Source: a virus. From it: a stretch of DNA of 45,773 nt. A program made the translations under genes and the position numbers. The stretch lies in IMG/VR virus record IMGVR_UViG_3300033145_000637, positions 1 through 45,773 of that record; one strand, written 5' to 3'. The notes below the pieces were generated by a model, which saw nothing but the letters and a program-made list of their open reading frames with translations, was not told the origin of the DNA and ran no database searches. This document shows positions 10,943 to 39,994 of this stretch, piece by piece (the stretch's first letter is position 1; every line of letters starts with the position of its first letter).

Positions 10943-11351
10943 GTTTAATTGGTACGATTGCGGCGCGCATAGATAACTTCTTTTCTTTGAACGCCTTAGC
11001 TTTTAATTCCCGGCTAATTTTGCCGTCTACGACTAGCTTATCAAATCTGTTGCGGTCGACATCCACAACAAAAGCCTTCTCCTCTAAAATAGAGAGTTCG
11101 TCTTTGGAAGCGTGTTTTTTGATTAGCTTTAAGTCGTAATACCTTTTGTAAGGCTGATCCACACGAATAAAGAAATCCTCGGTCTTAGCCTTGAGAACAT
11201 CTTCGGGTGTAGATTCTTTTGCGAGATTTTTTAAATCAATCTCGGCTTGTGCGACTTCTTCTTCAAAAGCGCTGATGCCATGCTTATCCTTAAGCTGTAC
11301 CAACTTCTGTTTCAAAGTCACATACTCAGAGAGTAGTTTTTTTAACTTCAT
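10935..11351 (-). CDS. Hypothetical early protein with helical N-terminus
   Basis: This 138-residue, mostly charged and helical protein begins MKLKKLLSEYVTLKQKLVQL. No domain is recognised. It is the first gene after the long untranslated region and has the clearest Shine-Dalgarno of the early block (GGGAG at 11365-11361, nine bases before the ATG). The H-type pseudoknot at 11369-11426 ends four bases upstream of that site, so its translation is probably regulated by RNA structure. Confidence 0.55.
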   Translation of the reverse strand: MKLKKLLSEYVTLKQKLVQLKDKHGISAFEEEVAQAEIDLKNLAKESTPEDVLKAKTEDFFIRVDQPYKRYYDLKLIKKHASKDELSILEEKAFVVDVDRNRFDKLVVDGKISRELKAKAFKEKKLSMRAAIVPIKHD

Positions 11352-11368
11352 TTGCTTCTTCTCCCATT

Positions 11369-11426
11369 TGTACCACCCCGGCCCCTTATGAGTGGCGAGG
11401 TGGAATGGTACAGATAGGCATAAGGG
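11369..11426 (-). promoter_or_regulatory. H-type pseudoknot next to the Shine-Dalgarno (riboswitch-like)
   Basis: In the minus-strand RNA, 11426-11419 pairs with 11390-11383 (8 bp, perfect) and 11412-11406 pairs with 11375-11369 (7 bp, perfect). The two stems interleave, with loops of 6, 15 and 7 bases, lengths that fit a real pseudoknot. A competing 5-bp hairpin, CCACC (11403-11399) with GGTGG (11377-11373), would break the second stem. The Shine-Dalgarno GGGAG of the 11351 gene follows after three bases. This looks like a translational switch. I do not recognise a known riboswitch class. Confidence 0.6.
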
Positions 11427-11456
11427 TTAATTAATAAACTAATAATTTTCAACCTA

Positions 11457-12026
11457 TGATAGTTCTCTAAAATCTGGGTAGAGCGAGGATTTGCGCGTTA
11501 GCGTACATTTTATTATTAAACAACTCAACCTATAGTTCATTCTACTTTCTTACCTAAATGACCTCTGGTTAGCTCGCCACAGTCCACTTAGTTTGGTTTG
11601 ATTTTCAAACCTCTCACACTACTTGCGCTAGGCGTGAGCCAGTTAGCTAGACAGTGAGATTTTCAAATTATCTATAAATTAGAGCCACTTCCCGTACCAT
11701 TAATCCACTCAGGGATTACCCCATACAGATTTAAGGTTAAACCAATCAATCAGACCATCCAACTTGAACAGTCCAACTCGCTACTCTCTATCGTCACCCA
11801 GACACTGTCAATATCTTGAGTTATTGTCGAAAGCTTTCACTCTGCGTACTTAGCGGTCGCCAAACCTACCAAGTACATCTTGCAAATCATGGCGGTAAAT
11901 AAAATGAGTCACCTCGCAACACTATGTTTGAACTATCATAGTATGGGGGAGATTCGTATTGTAGCGGTCTCCCTTCATGCGTGTACCTTTTTCGCCACCT
12001 ACCCAGATTTTAAAGAACTACCAACC
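11457..12026 (-). ncRNA. Large structured RNA candidate (about 570 nt)
   Basis: The ends pair in an uninterrupted 26-bp helix: 12023-11998 with 11457-11482, 23 Watson-Crick pairs plus three G-U pairs. Inside are several local helices: 11973-11968/11952-11947 (6 bp), 11944-11937/11926-11919 (8 bp), 11877-11868/11854-11845 (about 10 bp with wobbles), 11718-11713/11706-11701 (6 bp), 11638-11632/11619-11613 (7 bp with one wobble) and 11611-11606/11600-11595 (6 bp, loop AAAAT). No frame of useful length exists on either strand. A promoter ends seven bases before the closing helix. Size, closing helix and phage location recall ROOL and GOLLD RNAs, but I cannot test membership. Confidence 0.6.
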
Positions 12027-12032
12027 TAATTC

Positions 12033-12061
12033 ACATTAACATAAAAGTTACTAAAAGTCAA
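12033..12061 (-). promoter_or_regulatory. Promoter for the large structured RNA
   Basis: TTGACT (12061-12056; 5 of 6 consensus) is followed after 17 bases by TAATGT (12038-12033), preceded by TG at 12041-12040 as in an extended -10. The predicted start near 12026 falls three bases before the closing helix. The -35 overlaps the TGA stop of the gene at 12058-12360. Confidence 0.5.
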
Positions 12062-12360
12062 AAGTTATCCACAGGACACCAGAACCCTACCAAAATTTTT
12101 GAATCCCACTCGAGGAACATCTCACTCACACCACACAATCCATCTCTGTTGCTGTCCGTAATAAAAACACCACCAGGAAATGGTGGGTATGGCATGTATC
12201 CAATGTGTGGGGTTCCTGAAAAGTTCATGATCACAGCACAGCCCTTTGCAGGTCTAGCATTGTTATCTAAGTCAAAAGGTGTCCTTATAATAGGTAGTGA
12301 TGGGATTTTTTCACGAACATACTCTACACATTGAGGTGTGCAGAGTTGTATTTCGCACAT
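12058..12360 (-). CDS. CHAP/NlpC-like small cysteine-peptidase-fold protein
   Basis: This 100-residue protein has CVEYVREKIP near the N-terminus, PAKGCAVIMN, and GTPHIGYM. The spacing of Cys11, the G-C-A-V-I-M strand and His52 follows a CHAP/NlpC-P60 domain. It lies directly after the holin, so a lysis role is likely, although the domain is very short. The frame continues 20 codons upstream of the ATG at 12360 as a hydrophobic stretch (WLLGLILPIVIPIS), like a signal peptide, with no ATG, GTG or TTG before a TAA at 12423-12421. The real start may be an unusual codon, or the ATG may be correct and the stretch coincidental. Confidence 0.5.
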   Translation of the reverse strand: MCEIQLCTPQCVEYVREKIPSLPIIRTPFDLDNNARPAKGCAVIMNFSGTPHIGYMPYPPFPGGVFITDSNRDGLCGVSEMFLEWDSKILVGFWCPVDNF

Positions 12361-12424
12361 CGGGCTTATAGGAATTACTATCGGTAATATTAAACCTAGT
12401 AGCCAAGTTGGAATGTTGAGTTAT

Positions 12425-12604
12425 TTACGCTTTCGGTTTTGCAACTATGCGACCATAAATGACGACAACCAAACCTACTAACTCAAAACTTAATTTGATT
12501 AGCTGTTCCCATTCGTCAGGTGCTATATAGTTAGACAAACCAAAAGCACCAATCAAGAGAACACCTAACCCAACGAATGTCTTTTTACCCTCTAAAAACT
12601 TCAT
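12425..12604 (-). CDS. Holin-like small membrane protein
   Basis: The frame from the ATG at 12604 gives 59 residues: a short polar start (MKFLEGKKT), a hydrophobic segment FVGLGVLLIGAFGL, a loop with D-E-W-E-Q, a second hydrophobic segment LVGLVVVIYG, and a basic end. The L-x-G-K-K-T start and two short membrane helices match a common class of phage holins. It lies between two cell-wall peptidase genes, as expected in a lysis cassette. A strong promoter (12611-12639) would start the transcript at or next to the ATG. Confidence 0.75.
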   Translation of the reverse strand: MKFLEGKKTFVGLGVLLIGAFGLSNYIAPDEWEQLIKLSFELVGLVVVIYGRIVAKPKA

Positions 12605-12610
12605 AACATT

Positions 12611-12639
12611 ATTATACTATTAAACTGATAAAATTTCAA
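12611..12639 (-). promoter_or_regulatory. Strong sigma70-like promoter before the holin gene
   Basis: TTGAAA (12639-12634) and TATAAT (12616-12611) are separated by exactly 17 bases. The predicted start is near 12604, the first base of the holin ATG, so the transcript would be leaderless or nearly so. The -35 overlaps the TGA stop of the upstream endolysin gene. Confidence 0.65.
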
Positions 12640-13154
12640 CCTATATATTTATAAAACTCTACTGAAAGTCTTTTGTATTTTGTTTTCCACATCCATACAT
12701 TGAAGTGTTCATCCCAGAGTGAATCATCGGAGTTATTGGACATTACCTTGTGATTGTCCGATACGATTCCGACATGTCCGATAGTGTTTCCATGAGTAGC
12801 AGAAATAATTATACATCCTCGTTCTGGTTCATTAATCTTTTTCCACCTAGGGTCTGAGTCTAATTCTGGTTTTAATCTGTAGGTTGACAGCCTCTCTTTC
12901 ATTTCTATGCCTGCCAACGAAAGGACAGCCGTTAGCGCCTCAACACAACCGTAGGTATTGTACTTGGCCGACATATCTTTACCCAAACAATTCTTGGCTG
13001 TTTTGTATATTATGTCGTTATAACTAAGCTTACTTTTTTCTTCTTCTATTTTGTCGCTCAAAAGAACAACGAATTGTTCACACAAAACAATCACTTTTTT
13101 GGTTAACTTTGCGATCGTCTTTTTTAGTTTTTTAATCTGTGATATTTTATCCAT
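12636..13154 (-). CDS. Endolysin, Cys/His peptidase (CHAP or NlpC/P60-like)
   Basis: This 172-residue protein has a basic helical N-terminus with a hydrophobic patch (KKVIVLCEQFVVLL, about 19-32) and a C-terminal domain. Cys70 (TYGCVEALTAVLSLAG) and His127 (ATHGNTIGHVGIVSD) fit the catalytic pair of CHAP or NlpC/P60-like peptidases, followed by VMSNNSDDSLWDEHF. It should cleave peptidoglycan peptides. The N-terminal patch could be a membrane anchor or a signal-arrest-release element. It overlaps the end of the M23 gene by 31 bases. Confidence 0.72.
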   Translation of the reverse strand: MDKISQIKKLKKTIAKLTKKVIVLCEQFVVLLSDKIEEEKSKLSYNDIIYKTAKNCLGKDMSAKYNTYGCVEALTAVLSLAGIEMKERLSTYRLKPELDSDPRWKKINEPERGCIIISATHGNTIGHVGIVSDNHKVMSNNSDDSLWDEHFNVWMWKTKYKRLSVEFYKYIG

Positions 13155-13792
13155 GTTCTATATAAATACTTAAGATAGCCACTTACTGGGCGCCTGACAC
13201 GACTCTTACGGACACCCATTACTTCTAAAACAAAAACGTTTTTGTACCACTCATCCATGTCTATTGCGCCATTATGTCCGTTATCTTTATTTAGTGTTTG
13301 TCCGTTAGCAGAAATGTCCTTTAACATCTCATGGACATGGTGTCCTGACGATGCTCCTGTGTTGTTACACTTAGCGATTGGCTGACCGAAGATAACTTTT
13401 TCACCGTCACTCTTAAGACTTTCCTTTAAGTGTCCGATAGTATATTTACGATAATGTCCGTTAATAGGTTGCCTTGACAGAACGTGCAACCAAACACCCC
13501 CATTAGATTCTTTCTCATTCATGGCGTACCATTCTACGCCCTCAACTTGAATAGGGAAGTAGGCGAGCTCTCCGTCCCAACATGGACGGTCTACACCATT
13601 GTGACCCTTGAGTCCCATGAATGGATACCACAAGCGCCATCCTCGTGGGATTTTGTTTGTATACTTAGGTCTGCGCCGGACAATGAAAGGTATGATGGGA
13701 AAATCTCCACCACCTGCGCATTTACAAATTGCATAGTTGGCTCCGAATGGCTGGCTTACTCTTGGGCTTTTAATTGGTCGATATATAATCAT
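13124..13792 (-). CDS. M23 family metallo-endopeptidase (endolysin)
   Basis: This 222-residue protein carries the LytM/M23 zinc site: H64-N-G-V-D68 (GLKGHNGVD) and H152-V-H154 (GASSGHHVHEM), plus a Y-T-I-G-H-L strand with H121. M23 enzymes cut the cross-bridges of peptidoglycan. The N-terminal S-Q-P-F-G segment is also typical. No signal peptide is seen, so release would depend on the holin or on entry with the virion. Its ATG overlaps the stop of the giant protein (ATGA). It may therefore be made late, together with the ejection proteins, and could act in entry as well as in lysis. Confidence 0.85.
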   Translation of the reverse strand: MIIYRPIKSPRVSQPFGANYAICKCAGGGDFPIIPFIVRRRPKYTNKIPRGWRLWYPFMGLKGHNGVDRPCWDGELAYFPIQVEGVEWYAMNEKESNGGVWLHVLSRQPINGHYRKYTIGHLKESLKSDGEKVIFGQPIAKCNNTGASSGHHVHEMLKDISANGQTLNKDNGHNGAIDMDEWYKNVFVLEVMGVRKSRVRRPVSGYLKYLYRTWIKYHRLKN

Positions 13793-22798: not shown

Positions 22799-24423
22799 TT
22801 TGTGTTGACTGTCATATCGTCTACTGTGTCAATGTTAGCGTATATTCTGAAGTTTTTTATATACGCATCGTAACCACCTTCATTGTAAGCCATAAGATAT
22901 GCTTGAACTAAATCTCCCGGACTAACCGCAATATCATCTGAATAAGTTGTGTATGTTGTATCTTGGTCAGAATGTTCAGCACCAACGGCAACACCATTAA
23001 CATACACTCTTCCTTTTGTATAGTATGTACCGCTAGTAATATCATGTTTTAAGTCCATTTTTACTCTAACTGTTCCCAAGCGATTAACTCTTATTTCTTT
23101 TTTCTTTACATAAGTACCACCATCCTGTATTCGTTCTGTGTCAGCACTTTCTTTTAAGTTGTCAGAAACAACAAAACCTTGTAGTGTTGTTCCAATCGTT
23201 ATCGTATCTGTGCCATCATCGTTCACATCACCAGAAGTGTTGTTGTCATAACTATTTCCTGTAACTACATTTGCATCACAATTTGCATTGGCAACATTTA
23301 TTCCATATCCGCCATTATCCTCAAACACACAACCATTTATTATATTCCTATCAGCTGTTCCAGTTAATTTTATTCCATCACTTGAATTTCCCTTAATAGG
23401 ACAGTTGAGTATTGAAACATTATCGCAACCACTTACAAGTTCTATCCCATTTACACCATTTGATGCGGCGACTTGAACAATTCCTATTTCCTTGCAATCT
23501 GTAAGATTCATGCCATCACCAGTTGAGTTCATAAAGAATGAAGCTAAAAAGACAACCTTAGAACAACCACTCATTGTTATTCCATTTCCTCCTGCGTTTA
23601 TTCCTCCACTACTATTGAAAGATACATAATGACAATTAGTCATTTGTATGGCATCAGAAACCAAAGCAACATAATCAAAAGCATTTATTTGTATATTTTC
23701 AGAATCATCAATGTCAAGTGCTACCACTGATGCTTGAGTGTCAACATCAAAGAAAAATACTTCTCTTGCATATTGGATTTTAATACAAGCAGTTGCTGAA
23801 CCAGTTATTTTTAAGTTTGAAATTTTAACACCTTCTATTGGAGTGCATATAACATAAGTATCTCCTGACAAATCTGCTCCTGCATAAGCTGGCGATATTG
23901 TTAAGTGTGTTGTATCTGCAACAGCTGTTATCGGATAATAAAGCCCGCCTAACATTATAGACCTGCCAACCATTGCAGAAGTCCAAGTAGTGCCTGAACC
24001 AACAACAGCAGTAGCTCCATTTGTTACAGACACCGTTCCTGTGGTGTAAGCATTTGTGCCAACAGCTTTTATCTGATAAGCACCACTATTGAAATCAAGG
24101 GTGGTATTTTCTGCCGACTGACCAATCATTTCTATGTTGTTGTACCATGTTAGATGATTGGCAAGTTTATGTGTGCCATCTTTGAGATAAACTATTCCAC
24201 CCCCTGCATCATTGACCAGTTCAATGGCTTTCTGAATATCACCACCTACCTCTACTGTGACGCTTCTGCCTCCAATGAGAACATCTTGTAAAAATGTTTC
24301 TGTGCCTCCTGGAGTTTCTTGCTCGGAAATTGAAATCAATCCATCAGCAAAGTAAGTACCGATGTCGGCTCCGGCTCCGATGTTCATTTCCTCTACACTC
24401 AATTTTTGTTCTCTAGTAATCAT
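22795..24423 (-). CDS. Tailspike with parallel beta-helix
   Basis: This 542-residue protein has a short N-terminal attachment region and a pectate-lyase-like start (VGGDIQKAIELVNDAGGGIV, YLKDGTHKL). About ten rungs of Ile/Val-rich N-x-x-I repeats follow (GNGITMSGCSKVVF, GDGMNLTDCKEIGI, GVNGIELVSGCDNVSI, SDGIKLTGTADRNII), the pattern of a right-handed beta-helix. A C-terminal beta-sandwich-like region (about 440-542) may bind the receptor. Tailspikes of this fold bind and often cleave surface polysaccharide. Its start overlaps the hub stop by one base, consistent with the order hub then spike. Confidence 0.75.
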   Translation of the reverse strand: MITREQKLSVEEMNIGAGADIGTYFADGLISISEQETPGGTETFLQDVLIGGRSVTVEVGGDIQKAIELVNDAGGGIVYLKDGTHKLANHLTWYNNIEMIGQSAENTTLDFNSGAYQIKAVGTNAYTTGTVSVTNGATAVVGSGTTWTSAMVGRSIMLGGLYYPITAVADTTHLTISPAYAGADLSGDTYVICTPIEGVKISNLKITGSATACIKIQYAREVFFFDVDTQASVVALDIDDSENIQINAFDYVALVSDAIQMTNCHYVSFNSSGGINAGGNGITMSGCSKVVFLASFFMNSTGDGMNLTDCKEIGIVQVAASNGVNGIELVSGCDNVSILNCPIKGNSSDGIKLTGTADRNIINGCVFEDNGGYGINVANANCDANVVTGNSYDNNTSGDVNDDGTDTITIGTTLQGFVVSDNLKESADTERIQDGGTYVKKKEIRVNRLGTVRVKMDLKHDITSGTYYTKGRVYVNGVAVGAEHSDQDTTYTTYSDDIAVSPGDLVQAYLMAYNEGGYDAYIKNFRIYANIDTVDDMTVNTN

Positions 24424-29635: not shown

Positions 29636-30613
29636 TTAGGAGTTGTCTCCTTTGGCTCCAGCAATATAAGCAGGATGACCAATTCCTACTGTATAAAAGA
29701 AGTCACAAGAGTATGACCAGTTTTTGTTCTCATAAGCCTGATCAGGAGCGTCTAACGTTGGTCGTTCTGCAAACTTAGCCTGCAAAGACTCACCCACCTT
29801 TTTACTTTCAGTCATGAACCAATAAGCATCTGTGTCAGTACCTTGACCACTAGTGTCAAGTCTTTCCCAAACGATTATGCTCTTAATCTTTCCTTTCAGG
29901 TTGTTTATGTCGTTGTCCATCGAGCCTTGTAGCAAGTTGGAGTAAACGATTCGTTCTGCTATATCTTCGTTGTCTTGGCTAACTATTAAGGTGTCAAGCT
30001 TAACAGGTCTAATAATGCCATCTGCGCCTTTGTGTCCACGCCTCAATGCGCGAGTCGCAATAATGGCGGCCCTCGATATTGCAGGGTTAGTGTTCGTACC
30101 GTCAGTTATAATGTTTGTGTAGGTCTCTGAACCAACATTGTAATCGTGACCGGAATTAAACAAAGTTTTTGCATTAGGGCCAACAGAAGTAACTGTACCT
30201 CCGAACACGTCAGTATAACTAGATGACCATCCATTCAAAAGAACGTCTGCAAAACTCTGGTCAATTTTGCTGAAAGCATCATCAACTAAAGTTTTAGGAA
30301 GCTGTTCAATCTTTCCGAATAGATCGAACTTCCTCATCTCTTTTGTGACATCAAACAAGCCACCAAAATACCTCTGTGTCCAGATTATGGAATCACCCTC
30401 GTTAGAGTTGATGCTTGGTAGGTCTTGACCAGGGGTTACCTCTTCAATACCCTCCACTCCATGAATCATCTGGTACTCATAGCTTCTGCGATTAGTGTCC
30501 TTTACACTAAAAATCTTGAGTCCCTGCATATCTGCGATAGCATCTTCAGCGGACTCATTGAAAATCTCTTCGAGATCATCAGTAAGGGCTGGAAAATCTG
30601 ATTGAGTAATCAT
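29636..30613 (-). CDS. Major capsid protein (Mu gpT-like, HK97 fold)
   Basis: This 325-residue protein has the pattern of Mu-type major head subunits: an N-terminal helix (LTDDLEEIFNESAED), then YFGGLFDVTKEMRKFDLFG, an A-domain segment KTLFNSGHDYN, ISRAAIIATRALRRG and KLDTLIVSQDNEDIAERI. The C-terminus (NWSYSCDFFYTVGIGHPAY) ends in the usual strands. No protease domain is fused. The gene order scaffold, decoration, capsid fits a tailed-phage head block. Context and length are right. Confidence 0.8.
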   Translation of the reverse strand: MITQSDFPALTDDLEEIFNESAEDAIADMQGLKIFSVKDTNRRSYEYQMIHGVEGIEEVTPGQDLPSINSNEGDSIIWTQRYFGGLFDVTKEMRKFDLFGKIEQLPKTLVDDAFSKIDQSFADVLLNGWSSSYTDVFGGTVTSVGPNAKTLFNSGHDYNVGSETYTNIITDGTNTNPAISRAAIIATRALRRGHKGADGIIRPVKLDTLIVSQDNEDIAERIVYSNLLQGSMDNDINNLKGKIKSIIVWERLDTSGQGTDTDAYWFMTESKKVGESLQAKFAERPTLDAPDQAYENKNWSYSCDFFYTVGIGHPAYIAGAKGDNS

Positions 30614-30688
30614 AGATTAATAAAAAATGAATTATAAAGATTTGCTTCTTTATGCTTCTTTTTTTATTTGCTTCTTCTATTTGCTTGC
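30614..30688 (-). repeat. Short gap with repeated GAAGCAWA units
   Basis: The 75-base gap between the decoration and capsid genes contains three or four copies of AAGCAAAT or GAAGCAWA in the minus-strand RNA, plus AT-rich sequence before the capsid ATG. No frame or terminator is evident. It may be a leader that improves capsid translation. Confidence 0.35.
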
Positions 30689-31099
30689 TTAGCTCAATGT
30701 ACCTTCGTACTGAGTAAACCTTCCGTAAACCTCTTTGTTAGCAACCGCACCACGAATGGCTCGGATGTAAAAAGCATCAACAGAAGAAGAACTCTCGTTC
30801 AGGGTGTCGTGATCTGTAAGATCAGCGAACGTACCAACGTCAGTTGTCGTTGGGCTGGCATTACAATCAGCAATGAACTCAACATCTTCAGTTGCAAGAA
30901 CCAAAAGCTTTTCTTTTGCTGAAGTAGATACCTGTGCCTCCATAGCGACATAGGGAACAAAAGCAGTTGAAGATGTTGCGCGTTGGTACAAACCATTGCC
31001 ATCTTCTGCCAAAGCATCATACTTGGCCACGGTAGTTGTGGCAGCTTGGCTTACTTTTGATAACTTGCCCTTGTCGTAACGTATTGGTTTAAAACCCAT
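30689..31099 (-). CDS. Head decoration / stabilisation protein
   Basis: This 136-residue protein is Ala/Ser/Thr-rich and beta-rich (TTTVAKYDALAEDGNGLYQR, AFVPYVAMEAQVST). It has the overall look of small head proteins that follow the scaffold gene and precede the capsid gene, such as the DUF2190-like decoration proteins. No membrane segment or enzyme motif. The assignment rests on position and composition. Confidence 0.6.
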   Translation of the reverse strand: MGFKPIRYDKGKLSKVSQAATTTVAKYDALAEDGNGLYQRATSSTAFVPYVAMEAQVSTSAKEKLLVLATEDVEFIADCNASPTTTDVGTFADLTDHDTLNESSSSVDAFYIRAIRGAVANKEVYGRFTQYEGTLS

Positions 31100-32042: not shown

Positions 32043-32080
32043 AAAAGCCTCCCTATGATAACGTTAATTTTTCAAAGAAC

Positions 32081-32425
32081 TTATTTTTCGTTTTTCTGGG
32101 ACAACTCTTTCAGTCTTTTTTTCTGCTTTCCGAACTCTTTGCTTGAATAATATAACAACCGTCCCAACTCAAACTTCTGTCCCATTATTCTCATCAGTCC
32201 ATCTCTGTCATTTTCCATAATAGCTTTGAACGCCATGCCATCATCAAAGGATTTCATTATTCGCCTGTATCTTAATTGAATGTATGTATTGAATGCAGGG
32301 TTGTATGGATTCTGTCCAAGCCAAACCTTTAATGCTTCTTTCTCTTTGCCACCAAGGTCATCTTCAGGAAAATCTAACAGCTTAAATAAAACTCTAATAC
32401 AAAGATTTTTTATTTTCCGTTTCAT
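32081..32425 (-). CDS. Small hypothetical protein in the head block
   Basis: This 114-residue basic, helical protein starts MKRKIKNLCIRVLFKLLDFP and contains NPYNPAFNTYIQLRYRRIMK. There is no catalytic motif. The start overlaps the previous gene by 32 bases. Position between surface cassette and scaffold suggests a role in head assembly or packaging, without direct evidence. Confidence 0.5.
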   Translation of the reverse strand: MKRKIKNLCIRVLFKLLDFPEDDLGGKEKEALKVWLGQNPYNPAFNTYIQLRYRRIMKSFDDGMAFKAIMENDRDGLMRIMGQKFELGRLLYYSSKEFGKQKKRLKELSQKNEK

Positions 32426-38002: not shown

Positions 38003-39994
38003 TTATTCTAAACCAAGCACCGACACTCCCTCTTCCGCAGGAGCCTCTCCTCCCTCTGGTGGAGCAGGTGGCGCTGGTGGATTATATTCATCAGTTGTTT
38101 CGCCATAGAGCTCAATTCGTTCTCCGAATAGCTTCTCTTTGTTTGTGGCCGCGTATTCTGGGAAGTATGTAAATATCCATTGATGCTTCTCGTCAACCTG
38201 TTCTGCTTTGGTGGCGAGTGACTGGTCCTCCAAACTCTTGGAGATAACTTGGAAGTCATATTCCCAATCATCAAAGTAATCAGAAGATGCTACTACCAGC
38301 TTATAGTTCACTCCCTCTTCTTCGGCCATTTGCTCACGTGCCTCAATTTCCTCGCGTGTAAATGCATCAAAGGGCTTTGTGCCATCCTTGGTCATCTTTG
38401 CCCTGTCTGAGCCAGCTGAGGCGATTTGAATGCCCAATGTACCGATAGAACCATCGGAAAAATCAACTTCATCAACTTCGTAGTAGTTTAGAGCCTCTTG
38501 AATCACATCTGCACTTTCTGGTCCAACTATTGTTTCATACTTAGGCGCAGTATAATTTTGGAGAATATTAAGGATTCGGAGCTCTGTTTTCTGTATCCAT
38601 AAATCCTTTAAGAACATAAATGGGATTTGTTTTAGTTTGCGAGCATACTCATCGGTTATAATAGCTTCGCGAGCTGTGCGCTTCTGTGCTCCTGCCTGAC
38701 CTCCTTGCATTGGGTCAACAGAGTTTTCGTCAACCATTTTCCATATGAGCTGAAGCATCGCCACATCACCAGAGTCAACTTTGGATTCTGGCATTGGCTT
38801 AACTTGATTCACATCAGGCACGTACCATTTGTTATCTTGATTTACCAACTCATCTTCAATGTCAAGAATATCTTTGTTGGCTAGTCCAACCAGCATGCCA
38901 GGAACTAATGAGCGATACCACTTGTCAAGAATTGTATTGATAGCTGTGTTAGATACGTCTTGCAATCCCTCGAGGATACCAGGTAGAGATTTACCACAAA
39001 AGAAATTCCTGTTTGCGAATGGTTCGAATATCATCTTGGCGAATGGATACTTCTTTTTCTTCTTGCCCCACAGTAATGGAGCTCTGAGCATCTCTACACC
39101 ATTAATCCATATCTCGTAAGTGTCTTGGAGGTTATTATAAAGCCGGACAACTTCATAGTGTGCATCTTCGCGAACCCGAGACTCCCATTTTTCATAATAA
39201 TAAGAATGAACATCTGAAGTGAACCGACCGGCTGTTTTTCTGTCTAAAACATATTTAAGGTTAGGGTTGTGCTTGAACTCCTGAATGAGCTCATCTTCTC
39301 CATAGTATTTTATCCAAGCTACCTTTGGTTGTTTTTGAACATCAGAAATGTACATGTCCCACCAAAAGAACTCCTCAATAGGCACTTCTAGTTCAATAGG
39401 TCTGTCGTCAACGAGTTCTTCTTTAACATCAAACTCTACTGCACCAGTAATTGGGTCAAAACTGTTGATAACTTTGCGTTCGTATTTTGTGCGAAGATAA
39501 CTATCGTATTTGATATAAGTTCCTTTGCCGGCCGCTCCCCACATATCGAAGAACACTTCTACCTCTGGGTTATCAACCTGTCTTGAGTGTCTGACTAGTT
39601 GCTTCATGGCTTCTGCCCTTTTAGCAGAAAAAAGCCCAAACCTATTGGTGGCTTTATAACTTAACTCAGGAATTTGTAGAGCTGTACCGGCAACGATTGC
39701 CTTTAATTTATTTCTAGTCTTAGGGTCAAAGAGGTTCTCTTGCCAATCATCCTTCCCTTGGGCCTCTCTAGTGAGTGTGTATCCATTGAGCCTACGGTCT
39801 GAATCATTCACATACTCAATGATTGTCCTGTCTCCCTCTCCATTGTTAAACTCCTTGTATTTTTCATTCTTAATATCGATCATGTAATCGATATCTTTGT
39901 AAGCTTCATCTCGCCTTTCACGAACATCCGCATCAGGACGATAACGCGCGGACCCTATCTTGTTAATCTCTTTAGAAGTTGATACGATTGCCAT
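38003..39994 (-). CDS. Portal protein (podovirus type)
   Basis: This 663-residue protein has the size and helical pattern of the large portals of short-tailed phages. Recognisable segments include an N-terminal helix with ERRDEAYKDIDYMIDI, the stretch VEVFFDMWGAAGKGTYIKYD, EVPIEEFFWWDMYIS, MIFEPFANRNFFCGKSLPGI, LQDVSNTAINTILDKWYRS, and an acidic Pro-rich C-terminus. It forms the dodecameric DNA channel of the head. The order TerL, kinase, co-chaperonin, portal is typical of a packaging block. It overlaps the small gene upstream by 23 bases. Confidence 0.82.
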   Translation of the reverse strand: MAIVSTSKEINKIGSARYRPDADVRERRDEAYKDIDYMIDIKNEKYKEFNNGEGDRTIIEYVNDSDRRLNGYTLTREAQGKDDWQENLFDPKTRNKLKAIVAGTALQIPELSYKATNRFGLFSAKRAEAMKQLVRHSRQVDNPEVEVFFDMWGAAGKGTYIKYDSYLRTKYERKVINSFDPITGAVEFDVKEELVDDRPIELEVPIEEFFWWDMYISDVQKQPKVAWIKYYGEDELIQEFKHNPNLKYVLDRKTAGRFTSDVHSYYYEKWESRVREDAHYEVVRLYNNLQDTYEIWINGVEMLRAPLLWGKKKKKYPFAKMIFEPFANRNFFCGKSLPGILEGLQDVSNTAINTILDKWYRSLVPGMLVGLANKDILDIEDELVNQDNKWYVPDVNQVKPMPESKVDSGDVAMLQLIWKMVDENSVDPMQGGQAGAQKRTAREAIITDEYARKLKQIPFMFLKDLWIQKTELRILNILQNYTAPKYETIVGPESADVIQEALNYYEVDEVDFSDGSIGTLGIQIASAGSDRAKMTKDGTKPFDAFTREEIEAREQMAEEEGVNYKLVVASSDYFDDWEYDFQVISKSLEDQSLATKAEQVDEKHQWIFTYFPEYAATNKEKLFGERIELYGETTDEYNPPAPPAPPEGGEAPAEEGVSVLGLE

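What the first reader, a model, noticed from the sequence alone, without database searches (positions are those of the whole stretch)
11457..12061. A 570-base structured RNA candidate with its own promoter, closed by a 26-bp helix
The longest non-coding stretch of the window has ends that pair over 26 continuous positions (12023-11998 with 11457-11482). All three departures from Watson-Crick are G-U pairs in the minus-strand RNA and would be A-C mismatches in the other strand. At least six local hairpins lie inside. An extended -10 promoter (12033-12061) would start transcription three bases before the helix. A region with this shape and location recalls large ornate phage RNAs such as ROOL and GOLLD, but no tRNA is nearby. 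It could be a new class. A competing view is a MITE-like element: the arms are flanked by the 5-base repeat ACCTA (11452-11456 and 12024-12028), although AACCTA or CAACCTA also occurs elsewhere nearby.
Basis: partly seen in the sequence, partly recalled or inferred. Interest (0 to 1): 0.9.

Follow-up and report, generated by a model that had tools for sequence, protein, structure and literature searches.

The report
New phage RNA with rRNA-like closing helix
This phage carries a gene for a large folded RNA of about 570 bases that makes no protein; a second, distantly related phage carries the same RNA with many matching pairs of letter changes that keep the fold, beside a gene for an RNA-binding (Ro60) protein, so this looks like a new family of large viral RNAs that no RNA library lists.

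Summary
Positions 12023-11998 pair with 11457-11482 over 26 gapless positions (shuffles: longest helix 12.2 on average, 19 at most), closing a non-coding minus-strand region. It is a real structured RNA, not a MITE. One homologue was found in a different phage contig (IMGVR_UViG_3300033145_001147, here G009; nhmmer E=5e-20, 61% identity over aligned columns). The consensus structure of the two has 103 pairs, none broken and 30 changed on both sides; sliding the partners by 1-3 columns leaves at most 5. The fold predicted from the window sequence alone keeps 29 of 38 doubly changed pairs in the homologue (background 36%, p=4e-7). It matches no Rfam family, while a control ROOL was found.

The 5' arm carries a perfect rRNA-type boxA motif (GTTCTTTAAAA; G009 has TGTTCTTTGAAAA there), so the closing helix resembles the leader-trailer helix of pre-rRNA. 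In G009 the RNA lies directly upstream of a TROVE/Ro60 gene; in the window it follows lysis-type genes and no TROVE gene was found. Most likely: a stable RNA excised by an rRNA-like route that scaffolds a ribonucleoprotein (inferred). The claimed dedicated promoter is not supported. Only two members are known.

The parts
11457..12023 (-). the RNA: 567-nt structured noncoding RNA, 5' end near 12023, 3' end near 11457
   Evidence: fold z -4.5 to -5.9; homologue in G009 with 103 conserved pairs, 30 doubly compensated
11998..12023 (-). 5' arm of the 26-position closing (leader-trailer-like) helix
   Evidence: 6 pairs of this helix changed on both sides in G009
11457..11482 (-). 3' arm of the closing helix
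12008..12018 (-). boxA-like motif GTTCTTTAAAA inside the 5' arm; perfect match to the published gamma-proteobacterial consensus GYTCTTTAANA
   Evidence: G009 has TGTTCTTTGAAAA at the same place; consensus from PMC5725501
11947..11973 (-). hairpin GGGAGA..UCUCCC with invariant loop region CCGCUACAAUACGAA; stem changes to GGAUAGA..UCUAUCC in G009
   Evidence: pairing p=0.99; 2 doubly compensated pairs
11922..11941 (-). hairpin CUAUG..CAUAG; stem becomes UUGUA..UACAA in G009
   Evidence: 3 of 5 pairs doubly compensated
11912..11916 (-). 5' strand of a long-range helix CGAGG, pairing with 11488-11484
   Evidence: 2 of 5 pairs doubly compensated
11484..11488 (-). 3' strand of that helix, CCUCG
11898..11906 (-). 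5' strand of a long-range helix CAUUUUAUU, pairing with 11514-11506
   Evidence: 3 of 9 pairs doubly compensated
11506..11514 (-). 3' strand of that helix, AAUAAAAUG
11879..11899 (-). conserved core AUUUACCGCCAUGAUUUGCAA (20 of 21 identical in G009)
11847..11875 (-). hairpin UACUUGGU-GG..CCGCUAAGUA
   Evidence: p about 0.95; 3 doubly compensated pairs
11738..11744 (-). 5' strand of a long-range helix UGGUUUA, pairing with 11539-11533
   Evidence: 7 of 7 pairs kept, 1 doubly compensated
11533..11539 (-). 3' strand of that helix, UGAACUA
11612..11659 (-). stem UCUCAC..GUGAGA (becomes UCCCAU..AUGGGA in G009)
   Evidence: 2 of 6 pairs doubly compensated
11554..11591 (-). 13-pair hairpin CUAAGUGG..CAUUUAG
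   Evidence: 5 of 13 pairs doubly compensated, none broken
12058..12360 (-). 100-aa ORF of unknown function immediately upstream of the RNA
   Evidence: no Pfam or PHROG hit
12425..12604 (-). 59-aa ORF, holin-like by its appearance (hydrophobic, after the hydrolases); inference only
   Evidence: read; no PHROG hit
12636..13154 (-). 172-aa protein, weak CHAP / NlpC-P60 similarity (below Pfam cut-off); probable lysis or tail hydrolase
13124..13792 (-). 222-aa protein, weak M23 peptidase similarity (below Pfam cut-off)

Best explanation
11457-12023 (minus strand) encodes a large structured noncoding RNA of a phage, first of a family with two known members. SHOWN: closing helix, internal helices with covariation, boxA-like motif in the 5' arm of both members, TROVE/Ro60 gene directly downstream in one member. 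INFERRED: it is made and matured like ribosomal RNA. RNA polymerase reads through from the upstream lysis-type operon; host NusB/S10 bind boxA and make transcription resistant to Rho over this untranslated stretch; when the 3' arm emerges it pairs with the 5' arm (a leader-trailer helix); an RNase III-type enzyme then cuts in the long duplex and frees a compact, stable core of roughly 500 nt. INFERRED, weaker: the core serves as the scaffold of a ribonucleoprotein. In G009 the likely partner is the adjacent Ro60 protein, as Y RNA serves bacterial Ro60 (Rsr) in structured-RNA decay or RNA repair; in the window phage the partner would be a host protein or none.
For: Structure: 26-position helix far beyond chance; fold z -4.5 to -5.9 and -4.3 in the homologue. 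Homology: nhmmer E=5e-20 over positions 31-556. Covariation: 103 pairs, 30 doubly compensated, 0 broken; shuffles 15.1 +/- 2.8, none of 500 reaching it; slid structures at most 5. Fold predicted from either sequence alone and read on the other: 29/38 and 26/37 doubly changed pairs kept, background 36%, p=4e-7 and 2e-5. boxA: GTTCTTTRAAA expected 0.22 times in the whole window, yet lies inside the 26-nt arm; two copies of TGTTCTTTGAAAA in G009, both at 5' arms of long helices. A leader-trailer helix of more than 17 bp is needed for active 30S subunits, and boxA is necessary and sufficient for the rRNA antitermination complex (PMC10250234). TROVE in G009: Pfam E=7e-35, PHROG RNA-binding protein E=5e-61, start codon about 30 nt after the helix. 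Y RNA tethers Rsr to PNPase for structured-RNA decay in D. radiodurans (PMC7790460). Phages with very abundant ncRNAs near lysis genes are known: ICP1 (PMC7567579) and phage K (PMC9241854).
Against: Only two members; the alignment is by sequence, and one-side changes are kept no more often than background when a single-sequence fold is transferred (12/43), so parts of the predicted fold are wrong or differ. No transcript data. In the window phage no TROVE or RtcB was found, so Ro60 is not a required local partner. In rRNA boxA lies just outside the helix; here it is paired within it, which might hinder NusB binding unless it is read co-transcriptionally before the 3' arm is made. The G-type motif of G009 deviates from the gamma-proteobacterial consensus at one base, hosts are unknown, and my attempt to show the same string beside rRNA in a reference genome was inconclusive. 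No Y-RNA family matched.
Confidence: 0.5

Rival explanations
1. Same RNA, but working like ROOL or GOLLD: a protein-free, self-assembling homo-oligomer (RNA cage) that accumulates late in phage infection; the Ro60 gene beside it in G009 is an incidental neighbour.
For: Similar length (567 nt; ROOL model 574), phage location, multibranched fold with a terminal helix. Of the two phages only G009 has a TROVE hit. Other TROVE phages sampled have no such long helix beside the gene.
Against: No ROOL or GOLLD covariance-model hit even at E<=10, although the same search finds a true ROOL at E=1e-27. No tRNA in the window; one tRNA-His in G009, about 6 kb away. ROOL/GOLLD are not described with boxA arms.
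Confidence: 0.25
2. A cis-acting element: a long structured leader controlling the next gene (138-aa ORF at 11351 in the window, TROVE in G009), or an insulator that terminates or processes a polycistronic late transcript.
For: In both phages a gene starts shortly after the helix (about 105 nt in the window, about 30 nt in G009). G009 has two more long boxA/boxA-like-armed helices that enclose short ORFs (87 and 115 aa), so arms may be general processing devices. Region 11352-11456 is itself somewhat structured (z -2.4).
Against: The downstream genes are unrelated in the two phages, while interior loops far from the gene are conserved (a 21-nt identical stretch). A leader needs no 570 nt closed by 26 pairs.
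Confidence: 0.15
3. A MITE-like non-autonomous transposon with 25-bp terminal inverted repeats and ACCTA target duplications.
For: Arms begin TG and end CA, 92% complementary, flanked by ACCTA.
Against: Arm pattern absent from 2.9 million viral contigs and 84,980 genomes; no second copy in the genome; homologue has diverged arms that still pair, and interior helices covary; flank words recur nearby.
Confidence: 0.02
4. A replication origin with its primer or control RNA (as ColE1 RNAII), since TTATCCACA (DnaA box) lies at 12065, just upstream.
For: The only TTATNCACA in the window is there; G009 has TTATCCACA about 60 nt before its first helix element.
Against: One copy where 2.3 TTATNCACA are expected; it lies in the coding end of the 100-aa ORF; in G009 there are nine copies spread over the genome; no GC-skew turn at the RNA.
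Confidence: 0.05

Closest known systems
ROOL RNA (RF03087)
   Same: length, phage or mobile-element location, terminal helix, elaborate multibranched fold
   Different: no covariance-model match although the control ROOL on pMP118 is found; no tRNA neighbourhood; boxA in the closing helix; TROVE neighbour in one member
GOLLD and OLE RNAs
   Same: large ornate noncoding RNAs; GOLLD is also phage-borne
   Different: no match even at E<=10
ICP1 abundant ncRNA (between gp139 and gp140) and phage K lnc002
   Same: large noncoding RNA next to lysis genes; ICP1 also lacks tRNAs (PMC7567579, PMC9241854)
   Different: no significant sequence similarity; a comparable long terminal helix was not looked for beyond the folds
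Pre-rRNA leader-trailer helix with boxA (rrn operons)
   Same: boxA in the 5' flank, long helix joining the two flanks of a structured RNA, expected antitermination and RNase III-type processing
   Different: enclosed RNA is not rRNA; boxA is inside the helix rather than upstream of it; viral
Bacterial Y RNAs (YrlA/YrlB) with Ro60/Rsr and RtcB
   Same: noncoding RNA encoded beside a TROVE/Ro60 gene (G009); ends joined in a stem; an RtcB fragment elsewhere in G009
   Different: much larger than Y RNAs as I know them (about 100-300 nt); no Y-RNA family match; window phage lacks TROVE and RtcB; tRNA-like domain not looked for in detail

Membership tests
ROOL (RF03087) | match to the ROOL covariance model above 99.1 bits | tested here: not met
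   no match at E<=10 in the window region or whole genome; positive control 130 bits
ROOL (RF03087) | location near tRNA genes (usual, not universal) | tested here: not met
   no tRNA in the window; single tRNA-His about 6 kb away in G009
ROOL (RF03087) | assembly into an octameric RNA cage | not testable with these tools
   needs biophysics
GOLLD / OLE / HEARO / raiA | match to their Rfam models | tested here: not met
   all 4227 Rfam families searched on both members, only chance hits
Y RNA / YrlA | match to a Y-RNA model in Rfam | tested here: not met
   no positive control was run for Y RNA
Y RNA / YrlA | encoded beside a Ro60 (TROVE) gene | tested here: inconclusive
   met in G009, not met in the window
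Y RNA / YrlA | binding to Ro60 | not testable with these tools
   needs binding assay
boxA-dependent (rrn-type) transcription unit | boxA motif GYTCTTTAANA in the 5' flank | tested here: met
   GTTCTTTAAAA at 12018-12008; G009 TGTTCTTTGAAAA, one base off the gamma-proteobacterial consensus
boxA-dependent (rrn-type) transcription unit | leader-trailer helix of more than 17 bp | tested here: met
   26 positions in the window; 21 consecutive bp in G009
boxA-dependent (rrn-type) transcription unit | NusB/S10 binding and antitermination | not testable with these tools
   needs experiment
MITE | several copies with the same terminal repeats at unrelated sites | tested here: not met
   no copy in 2.9 million viral contigs or 84,980 genomes
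Structured noncoding RNA | compensatory base changes in homologues | tested here: met
   30 doubly compensated pairs, none broken; p=4e-7 with the single-sequence fold

The most novel reading that the evidence does not exclude
A viral RNA family that borrows the ribosomal-RNA production line (boxA antitermination plus leader-trailer helix excision) to make a large stable RNA that acts as a giant Y-RNA-like scaffold for Ro60 ribonucleoproteins during phage infection; phages use the same boxA-armed helices to excise other transcript segments, including short ORFs.
Probability: 0.25. Interest if true: 0.92.

Novelty: new variant of a known kind. Interest (0 to 1): 0.74.

Why it matters
Large structured RNAs of phages (ROOL, GOLLD) are among the most elaborate RNAs known and have no known function. 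Here is a further family, supported by covariation, that differs from them in sequence and offers two concrete handles on mechanism which they lack: a boxA motif in an rRNA-like closing helix (how it is made) and a Ro60 gene directly downstream in one member (what it may bind). Both are directly testable.

Tried and rejected
A second, paralogous RNA upstream (12040-12604), suggested by short repeats at spacing about 600, was rejected: that stretch reads as two ORFs (59 and 100 aa) and the aligned similarity is poor. The apparent RNA in phage G004 (L081:7531-8038; z -7 to -8.6 on both strands) is another element: small hairpins and a terminator, no similarity, no match to the core model. Relatives found through M23, RecA, terminase and exonuclease genes share only one or a few genes, so no RNA was found through synteny. 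BLAST in phages and plasmids with both members: nothing meaningful. Other 16-18-mer probes hit apparently unrelated sequence by chance; only ACCGCTACAATACGAA found the homologue, and its other three hits are chance. Ten TROVE-phage neighbourhoods carry no homologue of the core and, where gaps were checked, no clearly exceptional closing helix. A 21-mer of the core with up to 2 mismatches in 398 genomes of the Bacillota: 3 hits, about the level expected by chance. A coding explanation was considered because a 20-residue stretch is similar in frame in both members; it lacks a usable start, ends after 20 codons in the window and shows no third-position pattern.

Full report
OBSERVATION. The minus strand of 11457-12023 was re-examined. 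The two ends pair over 26 gapless positions, 12023-11998 with 11457-11482, all departures being G-U in the minus-strand RNA. In 400 dinucleotide shuffles the longest such helix was 12.2 +/- 1.4 and never more than 19. The stretch 11352-12057 is the longest in the window without an ORF of 70 aa. The minus strand folds at z=-4.5 to -5.9, while 120 windows of this genome average -0.1 with sd 1.4. Most of the excess is the closing helix, since the interior alone has z=-1.8. I therefore ran controls: a genuine ROOL has z=-1.1, and the published ncRNA regions of phage K (lnc001) and ICP1 have -1.7 and -1.8, so a weak interior z does not speak against an RNA. The proposed dedicated promoter is not better than chance. 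A strong sigma-70 match (TTGAAA-17-TATAAT, 11 of 12) lies at 12639-12611, before the 59-aa ORF, and could serve the RNA by read-through.

SETTING. The window is an IMG/VR record of 45,773 bases. The strand read is that of the main genes: terminase, head, tail and tape-measure genes lead to M23-like and CHAP-like hydrolases (12636-13792; weak hits below the Pfam cut-offs), a holin-like 59-aa ORF (12425-12604, by appearance only) and a 100-aa ORF, then the RNA, then a 138-aa ORF and the replication and recombination genes. No tRNA was found.

HOMOLOGUE. No Rfam family matches, no phage or plasmid record matches, and gene-based searches found only mosaic relatives sharing one or a few genes. Short probes from predicted loops were then tried. 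The probe ACCGCTACAATACGAA brought up L116, part of a 63,731-base viral contig (IMGVR_UViG_3300033145_001147, G009). nhmmer aligns the window RNA, positions 31-556, to it with E=5e-20. The two contigs otherwise share only faint similarity of a few genes.

COVARIATION. The sequence alignment gives a consensus structure with 103 pairs in 15 helices; none is broken in either member and 30 are changed on both sides. In shuffles 15.1 +/- 2.8 pairs change on both sides and no shuffle of 500 reaches 30; sliding the 3' partners by 1-3 columns leaves 1 to 5 such pairs and 39-51% of cells paired. Because that structure was derived from the alignment, I also took the minimum-energy fold of each sequence alone and read it on the other: 29 of 38 and 26 of 37 doubly changed pairs still pair, against a background of 36% for random column pairs (p=4e-7 and 2e-5), and restricting to pairs of probability above 0.5 or 0.8 gives the same picture. 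One-side changes are kept only at background rate (12 of 43), so parts of the single-sequence fold are wrong or differ between members. The closing helix has diverged in part (AAUCUGGGU..ACCCAGAUU against AAUUAAAU..AUUUAAUU) yet remains paired. The homologue itself folds at z=-4.3. A core covariance model finds the two members and nothing else convincing in the loci searched with it, about 1.4 Mb.

BOXA. The 5' arm of the window contains GTTCTTTAAAA, a perfect match to the published boxA consensus GYTCTTTAANA (PMC5725501); the loose pattern is expected 0.22 times in the whole window. G009 has TGTTCTTTGAAAA at the homologous place and a second copy at the 5' arm of another 32-nt inverted repeat (88%) just upstream, which encloses an 87-aa ORF; a third long helix (27 nt, 96%) with the similar arm TAGTTCATTAAAAATTGGGG encloses a 115-aa ORF before a DNA methylase. 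In rRNA operons boxA nucleates the NusB/S10 antitermination complex and a long leader-trailer helix (more than 17 bp needed) brackets the rRNA and contains the RNase III site (PMC10250234). The arrangement here is therefore rRNA-like. That it works so is inference; a difference is that boxA here is inside the helix. In G009 the RNA follows the first helix element within a few bases, leaving no obvious room for its own promoter, which also favours processing of a longer transcript.

RO60. The gene directly after the RNA in G009 encodes a TROVE/Ro60 protein (Pfam E=7e-35, PHROG E=5e-61). The window has none. G009 also has a C-terminal fragment of an RtcB RNA ligase at 2103-2432; the window has none. 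In bacteria Ro60 (Rsr), Y RNA and RtcB can form one RNA-repair operon, and Y RNA tethers Rsr to PNPase (PMC7790460). A scaffold role with Ro60 is thus the most concrete functional proposal, but it rests on one genome. Ten other TROVE phages sampled do not carry this RNA at a detectable level.

WHAT IT IS NOT. ROOL: the model does not match, and the same search finds the ROOL of pMP118 at E=1e-27. MITE: the arm pattern occurs nowhere else. Origin: the DnaA-box-like word is not informative.

VERDICT. Structured noncoding RNA: about 0.97. A family absent from Rfam release 15: about 0.9 (a paper outside the searched library could exist). rRNA-like production through boxA and the closing helix: about 0.5. 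Ro60 scaffold: about 0.3. The limits are two members, no transcripts and unknown hosts.

Noticed in passing
L135:4922-5286 (G009 23922-24286): A second boxA-armed long helix (32-nt arms, 88% complementary) encloses an 87-aa ORF immediately upstream of the RNA homologue; possible rRNA-like excision of an mRNA segment.
   Followed up: partly
L136:642-1069 (G009 38642-39069): A third long helix (27 nt, 96% complementary, arm TAGTTCATTAAAAATTGGGG) encloses a 115-aa ORF directly before a DNA methylase gene.
   Followed up: partly
G009 2103-2432 (L134): C-terminal part of an RtcB RNA ligase in an open frame of 115-118 aa without its N-terminal part; remnant or split gene.
   Followed up: partly
L134:3655-5484, L134:15778-18081, L136:11083-14367: Three G009 proteins (helicase, 767-aa protein, portal) carry intein or LAGLIDADG homing-endonuclease matches in Pfam.
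   Followed up: no
G009, nine places (for example 23864): TTATCCACA occurs 9 times (1.1 expected), 7 on the + strand; at 23864 it lies before a transcription unit, so it may be a promoter or replication element.
   Followed up: partly
L081:7531-8038 (phage G004): A 508-nt noncoding region with very strong folding on both strands (z -7 and -8.6), TTATCAAC repeats, a TATAAT box and an intrinsic terminator; looks like a small-RNA and control region.
   Followed up: partly
window 32070-32080: A second boxA-like GTTCTTTGAAA directly after the stop codon of the ORF at 32081-32425, heading a 180-nt intergenic region; no closing helix was found for it.
   Followed up: partly
window 11360-11435: Two mutually exclusive hairpins (GTACCAttCCACC..GGGGTGGTAC and CCCTTATG..CATAAGGG) before the 138-aa ORF, as in a leader or attenuator; z -2.4.
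   Followed up: no
window 30401-30970: Another strongly folding window (z about -3.4 with 60 shuffles, minus strand) around the start of the probable major head protein gene.
   Followed up: no
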